From contig NZ_CP110136.1 in NCBI RefSeq assembly GCF_025979705.1, forward strand, positions 3,224,001 to 3,288,000: a stretch of DNA of 64,000 nucleotides. Direction: 5' to 3'. The number at the start of each line of letters is the position of its first letter. The first letter of the stretch is position 1. Made by a program: the position numbers and the translations under genes. The notes under the pieces were generated by a model. The model did no database searches, had not been told where the DNA came from, and saw nothing but the letters and a program-made list of their open reading frames with translations. Positions 27,681-32,411 of the stretch are shown piece after piece. This DNA comes from Hymenobacter sp. YIM 151858-1. GTDB taxonomy: Bacteria > Bacteroidota > Bacteroidia > Cytophagales > Hymenobacteraceae.

Positions 27681-30056
27681 ATGTTGGTAATTAAACGCGA
27701 CGGCCGGCGCGAGTCCGTCAAGTTCGATAAGGTTACGGCTCGCATCGAGAAGCTCTGCTACGGGCTGAACATGATCTACGTCTCGCCCATTGAGGTGGCC
27801 AAAAAGGTCATCGACGGGATTTACGACGGCGTAACCACCGTAGAGCTGGATAACCTGGCGGCCGAAACCGCCGCTTCGCTCACCACCAAGCACCCCGACT
27901 ATGCCATCCTGGCGGCGCGCATTGCGGTGAGCAACCTGCACAAGGTGACCTCCAAGTCGTTCAGCTCGACGATGAAGCGGCTGTACACCTACGAGGACCC
28001 CAAAACCGGCGAAAATGCCTCGCTGATTGCCCGCGACGTGTGGGAGGTGGTGCACAAGCACGCCGCCCAGCTCGACTCGGCCATCATCTACGACCGCGAC
28101 TACAACTACGACTACTTCGGCTTCAAAACGCTGGAGCGCTCGTACCTGCTGCGCCTCGACGGCAAAGTGGTGGAGCGCCCCCAGCACATGCTGATGCGCG
28201 TGGCCGTAGGCATTCACCGCGACGACATTGAGCAGGCCATCGAAACGTACAACCTGATGTCGGAGCGGTGGTTTACGCACGCTACGCCTACCCTCTTCAA
28301 CGCCGGCACGCCCAAGCCGCAGCTCAGCTCGTGCTTCCTGCTCACGATGAAGGACGACTCCATCGAGGGCATTTACGACACGCTGAAGAACTGCGCGCTC
28401 ATCTCGCAGAGCGCCGGCGGCATTGGCCTGGCCGTGCACAACGTGCGCGCCACCGGCAGCTACATCAAAGGCACCAACGGCACCTCCAACGGCCTCACGC
28501 CCATGCTGAAGGTGTTCAACGACACGGCTCGCTACGTTGACCAGGGCGGCGGCAAGCGCAAAGGCGCTTTCGCGGTGTACCTGGAGCCCTGGCACGCCGA
28601 TATCTTCGACTTCCTGGAGCTGAAGAAGAACCACGGCAAAGAAGAGATGCGCGCCCGCGACCTGTTCTACGCCCTCTGGATCAACGACCTCTTCATGAAG
28701 CGCGTGGAGAGCAACGACCTCTGGACGCTGATGTGCCCCCACGAGTGCCCGGGCCTCGACACGAGCTGGGGCGAGGACTTCGAGAAGCTGTACCAGAAGT
28801 ACGAGCGCGAAGGCCGCGGCCGCAAAACCATTAAGGCGCAAGACCTGTGGTTTGCCATCTTGGAAAGCCAGACCGAGACCGGCACGCCCTACATGCTGTT
28901 CAAGGACGCTGCCAACCGCAAGAGCAACCAGCAGAACCTAGGCACGATTAAGTCGTCGAACCTGTGCACCGAGATTATCGAGTACACCGACGCCGACGAA
29001 ATTGCCGTGTGCAACCTGGCTTCGCTGGCCCTGCCCCGCTACGTACGCGAGGAAAACGGCCGCGTGTTCTTCGACCACCAGCGCCTGTTTGAGGTGACGT
29101 ACCACGCCACGAAGAACCTGAACAAGGTTATCGACATCAACTACTACCCCGTGCCCGAGGCCGAGCGCAGCAACAAGCGCCACCGCCCCATTGGCCTGGG
29201 TGTGCAGGGCCTGGCCGATACCTTTATTGCGCTGCGCATGCCCTTCGAGAGCGACGAAGCCAAGGGCCTGAACGCCGATATTTTCGAGACCATCTACTTT
29301 GCCGCCGTAACGGCTTCGAAGGACCTCGCCAAGCGCGACGGCCACTACGAAACCTACCCCGGCTCGCCCATTAGCAAGGGCCAGTTCCAGTTCGATATGT
29401 GGGACGTGAAGCCCAACTCGGGCCGCTGGGATTGGGAAGCGCTGCGTGCCGAGGTGAAGGAGTACGGCGTGCGCAACTCGCTGCTGGTAGCTCCCATGCC
29501 TACGGCCTCCACGGCCCAAATCCTGGGCAACAACGAGTCGTTCGAGCCTTACACCTCCAACATTTACGTGCGCCGCGTGCTAAGCGGCGAGTTTATGGTG
29601 GTGAACAAGCACCTGCTCAAAGACCTGGTGAAACTGGGCCTCTGGAACGAGCAGATGAAGAACGACATCATTGCCGCCAACGGCTCGGTGCAGAACATCC
29701 CGAGCATTCCGCAGCACATCAAGGACCTGTACAAGACGGTTTGGGAAATCTCGCAGCGCACCATTATCGACATGGCTGCCGACCGCGGGGCTTACATCTG
29801 TCAAAGCCAGAGCCTGAACCTGCACGTGCAGAACCCGAACTTCGGCAAGCTCACCTCCATGCACTTCCACGCCTGGAAGCGCGGCCTGAAGACCGGCATG
29901 TACTACCTGCGCACCAAAGCCGCTGTCGACGCCATCAAGTTCACGGTGCAGAAGCAAGCCGCCGAAACGCTGGAGCCCGTGTACGCCGAGCAGAACCGCA
30001 ACGATATGGCCTGCTCACTAGATAACCCGGACGCCTGCGAAGCTTGCAGCGCGTAA
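27681..30056 (+). CDS. nrdA: Class I ribonucleotide reductase, large (alpha) subunit
   Basis: A 791-residue catalytic subunit. The N-terminal ~90 residues are an ATP-cone ([18 protein letters not shown]), the allosteric activity switch. The active-site cysteines appear in LSSCFLLTM and [11 protein letters not shown] (the N-x-C-x-E triad). The finger loop and C-terminal redox pair CEAC at the very end (DACEACSA) are present. It reduces ribonucleoside diphosphates using the radical from NrdB. Only one CCTAGG word occurs in 2.4 kb. Two terminators follow. It does not share a transcript with nrdB as arranged here, so matching upstream sites may coordinate the two. Confidence 0.97.
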
Positions 30057-30078
30057 GAGGATTTATATATACGAAAAG

Positions 30079-30110
30079 ACCGTCCTGCCTATGTGGAGGA
30101 CGGTTTTTTC
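30079..30110 (+). terminator. Terminator after nrdA
   Basis: ACCGTCCT pairs with AGGACGGT, followed by TTTTTT; flanking TATACG/CGTATA can extend the stem. Confidence 0.9.
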
Positions 30111-30114
30111 GTAT

Positions 30115-30257
30115 AAAAAAAGAGTGCAGAAGTGAATCTGCACTCTTTAATATGATGGGGGAACGGTCACTATAGCCTCGTGACAAACGTCATCGTATCG
30201 GCCTAGCCCGTCCCCGAGCCATTCTAATTAAGCCCGTCTACCAAACTTTCGGTATCG
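30115..30257 (-). ncRNA. Putative small non-coding RNA with own promoter and terminator
   Basis: No ORF explains this stretch, yet on the minus strand it has a perfect promoter (30263-30292) and ends in a perfect 10-bp stem (30121-30130 with 30137-30146) followed by a T-run. The predicted transcript is about 140 bases. A long-range stem GGGGACGG/CCGTTCCCC encloses TGAC-GTTT-GTCA. The GTCAC strand of that hairpin can instead pair with a downstream GTGAC, so two folds exclude each other. Size and architecture could suit a 6S-type or regulatory RNA; I cannot name the family. It is not SRP RNA (no GNAR-type apical loop seen) nor RNase P (too short). Confidence 0.6.
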
Positions 30258-30262
30258 GAACG

Positions 30263-30292
30263 CAAAAGTACGCACAAAGATTCATGGAGCAA
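30263..30292 (-). promoter_or_regulatory. Consensus Bacteroidota promoter for the putative ncRNA
   Basis: The minus strand reads TTG, exactly 19 bases, then TACTTTTG: a perfect TTG-N19-TAnnTTTG promoter. It overlaps the first codons of the plus-strand HEPN gene, so that gene begins inside the ncRNA promoter. Confidence 0.75.
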
Positions 30293-32080
30293 GAAGATTT
30301 AAATAAACATTTTGTACTTGAGCGCCTATTTATAGGCTTTATGGAGGAGCTTTCAACCAACTCCACTATCGATAGTTACCGTGCAAAGTCAGCTAGTGCC
30401 CGCTCTGTGTTGAAAGAGTTGTACCAAGTATTAGCCGACTGGAAGGATAAGAAAATAAAGTCTCCTGATACTGTTATGGTCATCCGAGACGAACTAGCTG
30501 ATTTTATAGAAACGGATGAGCATCTACGTTACGGCAAAATATCAAAACCTTTTTTTCAAGACCTTTTAAAGGAGCTGAAGGTGGAGGATGGTAAAAAAGA
30601 AGACAGTAAAACAATAAACATAGTAAATATTCAACAACTTCAGTATAATCTATACTATTTGTTGACAATTAACAAAGAGTATCACATCGATATAATCAAA
30701 GATATAGAAAAATGCATATTTTCTACTTACAATGATGAGCAAAGCTTTGTATTAGCTCAAAAGGCTCTTAACAAATATTGTAGCCTTTTAACATCAGACT
30801 TACTGAATAGCGGATATTCAAAAACGTTTATTAGAACATTCATCAAAACAGAGTTTGACAAAAGCAATTCCAGCAATTTTGGCCCTCGTTGGGAAAAATT
30901 TAAGGAGGTATTCTCTTACGAAAATCAGATTGACTATATTGTTGTATTTAAATTATTTGTAAACATCGAAAAGGTTTTAGATGCTGATTTCGGTCAAATG
31001 AAGGAAAGTATAGAAAGCCTCAAAGAAAAATACAGATTAAATGAAAACACGAAATTATCTAAGTTTCTTGATCAGCATGGTCTTGATAATTTTATACCAA
31101 TAGAAACGAAGGCACTTGACAGATTCCAAGCGGCAAACAATGCCCGAAAAAAACTAACCATCATCCTTGATATTATTCATTTGATATATCCTCACAGCGC
31201 TCAGTCTATAAATAGCCAAGTGCTAGTAATCAACACTTATGACCATGAAGATGCACATTTGTTGAGACCTAATCCACAAGTAGATAATATACAAGCAAAT
31301 TCTGAAACATATAGTAGTCTCATCAGCAAGCTTACAAGTATTCGAGAGAACAACTGCGTTCTAGAAGAAGTATCGGACAAGCTCTACTCATGCGTCAAAC
31401 ACCTTAGGCTGGCAACAGAAGCAGACGAAATGGAACAAAAGTTTCTAAACTGTTGGATCGGTCTAGAAAACATTTTTGCGAATTACAATATTGATTCTAG
31501 CACTTTTAAACGAATAAAGCAGCACTTAGTGAATGCTCATTTAGTTAGCTATATAAAAAGGAATATACATAATTTACATAAGACATTAACAAAAAGTACA
31601 ATAAGAAAGCGCTTGCCCTTGTTTGACAAGGACGATATTACTTATCTAACTGACATACAAACCTATGATGCTATAATAGCATTAGAGAGCTATTATCCTT
31701 TGATAGCTTATAGAGCGAGATATTTGAAGAGTGTTTTATTTAATGGAAAGAGAAGAGTTACATATATAGAAAAACACAAACAAAACCTTGAAAGACATAT
31801 TGTTAGAATGTATAGAATTAGAAATGAAATTGTGCATGATGCAAGATCTTCTTACCAGCTAGACACTATATACGCTAATCTCAGATATTATCTCACTTTC
31901 ATTCTGAGTAAATGCGTAGAATTTTTTTCCGATTGCCAGCCAAAGCCAATCGAATTGCACAAGATTAGCATTGATGATTTCTTCTCGTACCAAGAATCAA
32001 TACTTAAAAGCTTAAAAAAGCATGAATATGGAGTAGCGACTTGCGTCTGTGTTCCACATTCTGTGGATTTGTTTATTTGA
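30284..32080 (+). CDS. Large HEPN-domain protein (Apea-like), probable acquired defence gene
   Basis: A 598-residue, mostly helical protein of no family I can name over its first ~370 residues. The C-terminal ~200 residues look like an Apea-type HEPN domain: QKFLNCWIGLENIF near 385 and the HEPN catalytic signature R-x4-H at Arg513-Asn514-x3-His518 in MYRIRNEIVHDA, followed by LRYYLTFILSKCVEF. HEPN proteins are frequently metal-independent RNases in toxin-antitoxin and anti-phage systems. The gene is strikingly AT-rich (by eye about 35% GC), has no CCTAGG word, and no partner gene, so horizontal transfer is very likely. No signal peptide or membrane segment. RNase activity is inference. Confidence 0.8.
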   Translation: MEQEDLNKHFVLERLFIGFMEELSTNSTIDSYRAKSASARSVLKELYQVLADWKDKKIKSPDTVMVIRDELADFIETDEHLRYGKISKPFFQDLLKELKVEDGKKEDSKTINIVNIQQLQYNLYYLLTINKEYHIDIIKDIEKCIFSTYNDEQSFVLAQKALNKYCSLLTSDLLNSGYSKTFIRTFIKTEFDKSNSSNFGPRWEKFKEVFSYENQIDYIVVFKLFVNIEKVLDADFGQMKESIESLKEKYRLNENTKLSKFLDQHGLDNFIPIETKALDRFQAANNARKKLTIILDIIHLIYPHSAQSINSQVLVINTYDHEDAHLLRPNPQVDNIQANSETYSSLISKLTSIRENNCVLEEVSDKLYSCVKHLRLATEADEMEQKFLNCWIGLENIFANYNIDSSTFKRIKQHLVNAHLVSYIKRNIHNLHKTLTKSTIRKRLPLFDKDDITYLTDIQTYDAIIALESYYPLIAYRARYLKSVLFNGKRRVTYIEKHKQNLERHIVRMYRIRNEIVHDARSSYQLDTIYANLRYYLTFILSKCVEFFSDCQPKPIELHKISIDDFFSYQESILKSLKKHEYGVATCVCVPHSVDLFI

Positions 32081-32411
32081 CTATATCAATGTAATACTGT
32101 GAACTACTCGCCCACAGTATTCTGAATCTTTGCGCTTCACGAAAAGGCACGAGTGACAAATTCGCCCCAACTGCCGCGAGCTTGCAGCTCGCGACTAACG
32201 CATGATGTGGAGATTGTATCTTCACTGCCGCCCCAGTGGCAAGCTGACAACATACAACGTGAATCAAGCGAGTAGAAAACCTGCCACACAAGAAGGTACG
32301 ATTAGTAAACTCGCGCCAGTTAAGCTAGAAGTCGACTAGTCAACAAACACAAACAACACAGCCGGCCTTTGCGCGAAGCAAAAGCCGGCTGTGTTGTTCA
32401 AAAACCTATGC
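32081..32411. other. Gap after the HEPN gene with two hairpins
   Basis: No supported ORF. A perfect CGCGAGC-TTGCA-GCTCGCG hairpin lies at 32175-32193. A strong 15-bp stem (32352-32366 with 32384-32398) is the probable terminator of the minus-strand His-rich gene. The junction between AT-rich and normal composition falls near 32100-32150. Confidence 0.6.

What the first reader, a model, noticed from the sequence alone, without database searches (positions are those of the whole stretch)
30284..32080. AT-rich orphan gene for a large HEPN protein
The 598-residue product ends in a HEPN domain with an intact R-x4-H motif (Arg513, His518) after a ~370-residue helical region of no known family. It is sharply AT-rich, free of the ACCTAGG word, and has no antitoxin or partner gene. 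Large orphan HEPN proteins are often abortive-infection RNases, and the long N-terminal region could be a new sensor.
Basis: partly seen in the sequence, partly recalled or inferred. Interest (0 to 1): 0.72.

Follow-up and report, generated by a model that had tools for sequence, protein, structure and literature searches.

The report
ApeA defence RNase with hidden RNA
The gene encodes a member of ApeA, a known family of bacterial antiviral RNA-cutting enzymes, but in this branch of the family every copy examined also has a previously unannotated small structured RNA encoded on the opposite strand just in front of the gene, which may hold the enzyme in check until a virus attacks.

Summary
The ORF at 30284-32080 is real and is a full-length ApeA-family HEPN protein. 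A profile built only from its Hymenobacteraceae relatives matches solved E. coli ApeA proteins over residues 16-544 (E 9e-27), so the N-terminal region is not 'of no known family'. HEPN fold and R513/H518 hold up across 28 sequences.

Two things were missed. (1) Immediately upstream, on the opposite strand, lies an unannotated ~140-nt structured RNA (about 30256-30112): promoter box, long hairpin, intrinsic terminator. All 22 Bacteroidota apeA loci have this architecture at the same place (exact promoter box in 20). The closing helix covaries, a covariance model finds it credibly only beside apeA, and Rfam has no such family. The best-precedented role is an RNA that restrains the HEPN toxin, as AbiFr/RCd22 does for AbiF; this is inference. 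(2) The site behind nrdA is a cargo hotspot in Hymenobacteraceae: 46 of 59 other genomes carry an AT-rich gene there, several of known defence families.

No paper reporting the RNA was found, but the 2026 ApeA preprint could not be read.

The parts
30284..32080 (+). apeA: ApeA-family HEPN protein, 598 aa
   Evidence: ApeA homology; model
30284..31372 (+). N-terminal ApeA region (residues about 1-363), mixed mostly helical, presumed sensor
   Evidence: Aligned with Ec2ApeA from residue 16; secondary structure; sensor role inferred
31373..31936 (+). HEPN domain (residues about 364-551)
   Evidence: Structural matches to HepT, MntA-HepT and Csm6
31820..31837 (+). R-x4-H catalytic motif, Arg513 to His518
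   Evidence: Invariant in 28 sequences
30112..30256 (-). Divergent small structured RNA (name proposed here: apeR), about 140 nt, 5' end near 30256 inferred from the promoter box
30263..30270 (-). Promoter -7 box TACTTTTG of the RNA (fits TAnnTTTG)
   Evidence: position 21 nt from the apeA ATG; not measured
30159..30215 (-). Main hairpin of the RNA, closed by helix P1 (GGGGACGG / CCGUUCCC)
   Evidence: Folding; covariation
30112..30148 (-). Intrinsic terminator of the RNA: 12-bp perfect stem (30119-30130 / 30137-30148) and U-tract
   Evidence: Inverted repeat I10
27681..30056 (+). nrdA-like gene (ribonucleotide reductase large subunit), left border of the hotspot
   Evidence: assigned from sequence by own knowledge; conserved in all 8 congeneric genomes; apeA follows it in four genomes
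30062..30121 (+). Terminator-like hairpin between nrdA and the RNA gene
   Evidence: Inverted repeat I1

Best explanation
The gene is an ApeA-family abortive-infection RNase carried as an AT-rich cassette in a defence hotspot behind nrdA. The N-terminal ApeA region (about 1-363) senses infection; a preprint title on ApeA names deoxydinucleotides as activator. Sensing activates the C-terminal HEPN domain, whose R513/H518 pairs form an RNase site in a dimer or larger oligomer and shut the cell down by cutting RNA. Shown here: homology, fold, active-site conservation, relatives in defence islands. Inferred: activity, trigger, target. In front of the gene, on the other strand, a conserved structured RNA of about 140 nt is encoded. 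Its most likely role is to bind and restrain ApeA as an RNA antitoxin or cofactor, as AbiFr/RCd22 does for the HEPN toxin AbiF. The RNA gene, its structure and its linkage to apeA are supported by comparative evidence; its action is inference (about 45% for direct restraint).
For: Full-length ApeA homology from a profile with no ApeA-labelled row, E 9e-27; PADLOC ApeA matches 6 of 8 relatives; HEPN fold; R513/H518 invariant in 28; relatives beside type I and IIG restriction, AbiD and ppl. RNA: terminator-plus-promoter signature at 17 of 22 apeA genes against 1 of 168 neighbour genes and 0 of 240 shuffles; helix P1 covariation with 38 doubly changed cells against 13.7 in shuffles and a loss of pairing on sliding; model hits credible only beside apeA; upstream region more conserved than the gene in a plasmid pair, 90% against 82%. 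Precedent for RNA restraint of a HEPN toxin: PMC12373285, PMC12737573.
Against: No expression, binding or phage data. Ec2-like ApeA relatives (G238, G446, G504) show no such RNA, so ApeA can presumably work without it. Unlike AbiFr the RNA is divergent, and its transcript may overlap the apeA 5' UTR, which also fits a purely regulatory role. The window protein alone scores nothing in the PADLOC and Pfam ApeA models.
Confidence: 0.6

Rival explanations
1. ApeA works alone, as the single-protein E. coli systems are described; the divergent RNA only tunes apeA expression, by promoter interference or by antisense pairing of its 5' leader with the apeA 5' UTR.
For: RNA promoter lies 15-29 nt from the apeA ATG in 18 of 22 loci, and an apeA-strand -7-like box abuts the hairpin in many, so the two transcripts may overlap at their 5' ends. 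Ec2-like ApeA lacks the RNA.
Against: The covarying, most conserved part (hairpin P1) lies outside the possible overlap; pure antisense control needs no conserved helix.
Confidence: 0.3
2. The RNA is a positive component: a decoy, sensor or substrate (for example cleaved or displaced during infection) that activates ApeA instead of restraining it.
For: Type IX retrons couple a HEPN effector to a nucleic-acid sensor (PMC13405049); the RNA is strictly linked to this ApeA branch.
Against: The only ApeA activator named in what I could read is a deoxydinucleotide; nothing here shows RNA-dependent activity.
Confidence: 0.12
3. The upstream element is not an RNA gene but a DNA element, for example a cassette end or recombination site of the mobile unit.
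For: Similarity between Enterobacter and E. coli plasmids begins at the upstream terminator; the site is a cargo hotspot.
Against: G-U pairs and compensatory changes, strand-specific terminator with U-tract, and a strand-specific promoter box all point to a transcript; other cargo at the same site lacks the element.
Confidence: 0.08
4. The gene is a nrdA-linked housekeeping gene acting in nucleotide metabolism rather than defence.
For: It lies directly behind nrdA on the same strand in four Hymenobacteraceae genomes, whose ApeA proteins form one clade.
Against: Absent from 199 of 204 genomes of the family; the same spot holds unrelated AT-rich genes in 46 of 59 other genomes; terminator-like hairpins separate it from nrdA; other relatives sit elsewhere, several beside restriction systems.
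Confidence: 0.03

Closest known systems
ApeA anti-phage HEPN protein (PADLOC PDLC02157; PDB series 9hxb, 9hxm, 9hxn, 9hxj; family ApeA/BMEI1217 of Anantharaman et al. 2013)
   Same: Full-length alignment, C-terminal HEPN with R-x4-H, similar length, scattered distribution, defence-island context
   Different: Not recognised by Pfam or PADLOC models on its own; N-terminal region mostly helical in the model, whereas ApeA-NTD1 of Anantharaman is described as mostly beta strands; a divergent structured RNA is attached, absent from the Ec2-like relatives examined
AbiF with its RNA antitoxin AbiFr/RCd22 (type III-like toxin-antitoxin)
   Same: HEPN toxin with a linked conserved structured RNA
   Different: Protein is ApeA, not Abi_2/AbiD/F; the RNA is on the opposite strand, divergent; no Rfam match; restraint not shown
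Type IX retron HEPN effector
   Same: HEPN RNase controlled through a nucleic-acid partner (PMC13405049)
   Different: No reverse transcriptase or winged-helix gene at the locus; nothing suggests the RNA is reverse transcribed
HepT-MntA toxin-antitoxin
   Same: HEPN fold is the closest structural match
   Different: HepT is a small protein (chains of 130-147 residues) neutralised by a partner nucleotidyltransferase; here a 598-residue protein and no such partner seen

Membership tests
ApeA | Homology to characterised ApeA proteins along most of the length | tested here: met
   Profile of five Hymenobacteraceae rows: Ec2ApeA residues 21-536 against 16-544, E 9.3e-27; also Ec1, Ec3, Ec4; single sequence 9e-10
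ApeA | C-terminal HEPN domain with intact R-x4-H | tested here: met
   R513/H518 invariant in 28; HEPN fold
ApeA | Recognition by the PADLOC ApeA model | tested here: inconclusive
   No hit for the window protein; 6 of 8 aligned relatives hit, best 7e-12
ApeA | Beta-rich ApeA-NTD1 in front of HEPN | tested here: inconclusive
   No Pfam hit and a mostly helical N-terminal model; E. coli ApeA of known structure nevertheless aligns over this region
ApeA | Anti-phage activity and deoxydinucleotide activation | not testable with these tools
   Needs phage challenge and biochemistry
AbiF/AbiFr-type HEPN-RNA toxin-antitoxin | Protein of the Abi_2/AbiD/F family | tested here: not met
   No Abi_2 match in Pfam; ApeA instead
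AbiF/AbiFr-type HEPN-RNA toxin-antitoxin | Linked conserved structured RNA | tested here: met
AbiF/AbiFr-type HEPN-RNA toxin-antitoxin | RNA neutralises the toxin by binding | not testable with these tools
   Needs RNA in trans, pull-down or EMSA
HepT-MntA toxin-antitoxin | Adjacent MNT nucleotidyltransferase gene | tested here: inconclusive
   Adjacent ORFs are an nrdA-like gene and a short opposite-strand ORF, and no window gene matches PADLOC at 1e-15; no MNT model was searched directly

The most novel reading that the evidence does not exclude
A branch of ApeA is a two-part protein-RNA defence system: a small divergent RNA with a conserved hairpin binds ApeA and keeps its HEPN RNase off, and loss or displacement of the RNA (alone or together with deoxydinucleotides) triggers abortive infection. 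That would be a second RNA-restrained HEPN lineage besides AbiF, the proposed ancestor of Cas13.
Probability: 0.42. Interest if true: 0.82.

Novelty: new variant of a known kind. Interest (0 to 1): 0.62.

Why it matters
ApeA is treated as a single-protein system. A conserved structured RNA gene beside a whole branch of the family means that the unit used to clone or annotate these systems may be incomplete, gives a direct test of how a toxic HEPN RNase is kept silent, and offers a parallel to AbiF-AbiFr, from which Cas13 is thought to descend. The nrdA-linked hotspot is also a ready source of single-gene defence candidates from a little-studied bacterial family.

Tried and rejected
Pfam and NCBIfam scans of the protein: nothing credible. 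Foldseek of both models against the PDB: no significant match, and no 9hx ApeA entry appeared in the rows shown, so fold evidence rests on the VIA-align second look. Phage records and viral contigs: no relatives. A clean empty site in congeners: not found, because the site holds other sequence there. The 13-bp inverted repeat around the gene (30272-30284 / 32123-32135) was considered as a cassette end; it is one of 23 inverted repeats in that stretch and was not followed. Whole-length MAFFT alignment of the RNAs misaligned the helix and RNAalifold gave no pairs; the test was redone on sequences cut at P1. That register was chosen from single-sequence folds, so the slide control matters: 72-111 cells paired against 149. 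Model R1 does not detect the window's own divergent RNA; an nhmmer profile of the four nrdA-site RNAs does, but those rows made the profile, so only its silence at the other sites is informative. Rfam: no credible match. Two weak genome hits of R1 lie in contexts of ordinary genes with no ApeA found in the genome and are judged false. ApeA as an nrdA-linked housekeeping gene: rejected (see rivals).

Full report
The gene. The ORF at 30284-32080 is real and strongly foreign in composition: GC 33.8%, GC3 0.33, against GC3 0.78-0.87 for four other window genes. The ACCTAGG argument is weak: about 2.2 sites are expected in the gene. Relatives were found in 5 of 204 genomes of the bacterial family, counting its own, and in none of the seven congeners.

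What the protein is. A plain phmmer search of solved structures already returns ApeA: Ec4ApeA at 4e-11 and Ec2ApeA at 9e-10 over residues 16-549. A profile of five Hymenobacteraceae rows, with no ApeA-labelled sequence in it, gives Ec2ApeA E 9.3e-27 over residues 16-544 and also hits Ec1, Ec3 and Ec4 ApeA. PADLOC's ApeA model misses this protein but matches six of eight aligned relatives. The predicted model is good (pLDDT 80.5). The C-terminal domain alone (pLDDT 89) has as its eight best structural matches only HEPN-type proteins: HepT toxins, 2q00, MntA-HepT complexes and Csm6, Z 7.7 to 5.3. These Z values are modest, but they head the list and agree with the sequence result. R513 and H518 are invariant in 28 sequences, as are W391, E395, R508, Y510 and Y536.

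Defence context. Flanks of relatives hold type I restriction genes (endonuclease subunits at L018, L020, L023), a type IIG-like enzyme (L013) and an AbiD match in the L009-L015 set, which by its sequence I place in L009. Plasmid relatives in Enterobacter and E. coli sit beside the anti-phage gene ppl. None of 42 other window genes matches PADLOC at 1e-15. All 28 apeA genes are more AT-rich than their flanks.

The nrdA hotspot. In four Hymenobacteraceae genomes apeA lies directly behind nrdA on the same strand, and these four proteins form one clade (98/90). Homology to congeners stops at the nrdA stop codon. In 59 other genomes of the family, 46 have an AT-rich ORF of at least 150 aa starting within 1.3 kb of nrdA, in 44 of them on the same strand; a control interval 4.0-5.25 kb downstream has none. 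Fifty-two such cargo proteins fall into 38 clusters and include DRT reverse transcriptases (UG19, UG21), AbiJ, a GmrSD/NsnA-like protein, an AriAB-like ATPase and a weak SIR2-like match. One literature search for such a hotspot found nothing.

The RNA. Printing the upstream regions of all relatives showed a shared element on the strand opposite apeA. In order on that strand: a TAnnTTTG box (20 of 22 Bacteroidota loci; 15-29 nt from the ATG in 18 of them), a long imperfect hairpin, and an intrinsic terminator whose stem sequence differs from locus to locus. That TAnnTTTG is the Bacteroidota -7 consensus is my own knowledge. A strict automatic signature (perfect-stem terminator plus box at 100-180 nt) occurs upstream of 17 of 22 apeA genes, 1 of 168 neighbouring genes, 0 of 240 shuffled sequences, and 0 of 22 on the apeA strand. 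Ten of these RNAs fold better than shuffles, z -2.6 to -6.8; the window RNA has z -5.6.

Covariation. Over 23 sequences the closing helix P1 has 149 of 184 cells paired, against 122.5 (sd 3.8) in shuffles and 72-111 when slid; 38 cells are changed on both sides against 13.7 (sd 3.7); 0 of 2000 shuffles reach either value. In the window group the change is visible directly: C-G in the window and G129 becomes U-A in G020. Shuffles ignore relatedness; the slide control does not. A covariance-model alignment agrees, but it is fitted to the structure and holds some spurious rows.

Specificity. The model finds the RNA beside apeA in 13 loci at E below 1e-4, including L011, which was not used to build it, and nothing credible in 65 nrdA loci without apeA. 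In 390 genomes of the order the three strong hits lie beside apeA; two weak ones lie among ordinary genes in genomes where no ApeA was found. A profile of the window-type RNA finds it only at the four nrdA sites with apeA. In a plasmid pair the similarity between Enterobacter and E. coli begins at the upstream terminator, and the upstream region is 90% identical against 82% for the gene. Rfam has no credible match. Ec2-like ApeA relatives (G238, G446, G504), a separate group (100/100), show no such element.

How it most likely works. Shown by sequence: an ApeA HEPN protein with intact active site, and a linked structured RNA gene. From the literature: HEPN R-x4-6-H domains are predicted and in several cases shown to be metal-independent RNases (PMC3710099); ApeA is, by the title of a preprint, activated by deoxydinucleotides (cited in PMC13405049); AbiF HEPN toxins are neutralised by a bound RNA (PMC12373285, PMC12737573). 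Inferred: phage damage to DNA yields the trigger, the N-terminal region senses it, HEPN cuts RNA and growth stops, while the divergent RNA keeps ApeA silent between infections. The alternative that the RNA only tunes apeA expression is real, because the two transcripts may overlap at their 5' ends.

Limits. No transcript has been measured; transcript ends are inferred from a consensus box and a terminator. The ApeA preprint was not readable, so the RNA may already be known to its authors. The cellular target of ApeA is not addressed by any result here. The Pelobacter and Enterobacter upstream elements share the layout (hairpin plus terminator) but lack the promoter box and their homology to the Bacteroidota RNA is not established.

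Noticed in passing
30057-32400, and the same site in 59 Hymenobacteraceae genomes (L060-L119): The spot directly behind nrdA is a cargo hotspot: a different AT-rich gene, usually on the same strand and about 100-200 bp after the nrdA stop, in 46 of 59 genomes, several of known defence families (DRT, AbiJ, GmrSD/NsnA-like).
   Followed up: partly
L046:3960-4594 and L009:11832-12448: A two-gene module resembling DUF433/DUF5615 (named from memory, not by a family search) occupies the nrdA site with or without apeA and recurs in several other genomes of the family.
   Followed up: no
whole window: The word ACCTAGG or its complement occurs 80 times in 64 kb, far more than a 7-mer should; cause unknown.
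   Followed up: no
all 28 apeA loci: apeA is more AT-rich than its flanks in every relative, even in AT-rich hosts, so low GC is a property of the family, not only of recent arrival here.
   Followed up: partly
L008:7191-9020, L120:3176-5005: Relatives of Ec4ApeA on Enterobacter and E. coli plasmids, annotated only as hypothetical proteins, lie beside ppl.
   Followed up: partly
30272-30284 and 32123-32135: A 13-bp inverted repeat with one mismatch brackets the gene; it may be chance.
   Followed up: no
L082, L087, L094, L114 (first ORF after nrdA): A family of about 500-aa AT-rich proteins recurs four times at the nrdA hotspot; the one member scanned on its own, L082, has no PADLOC match. A candidate unknown defence gene.
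   Followed up: no
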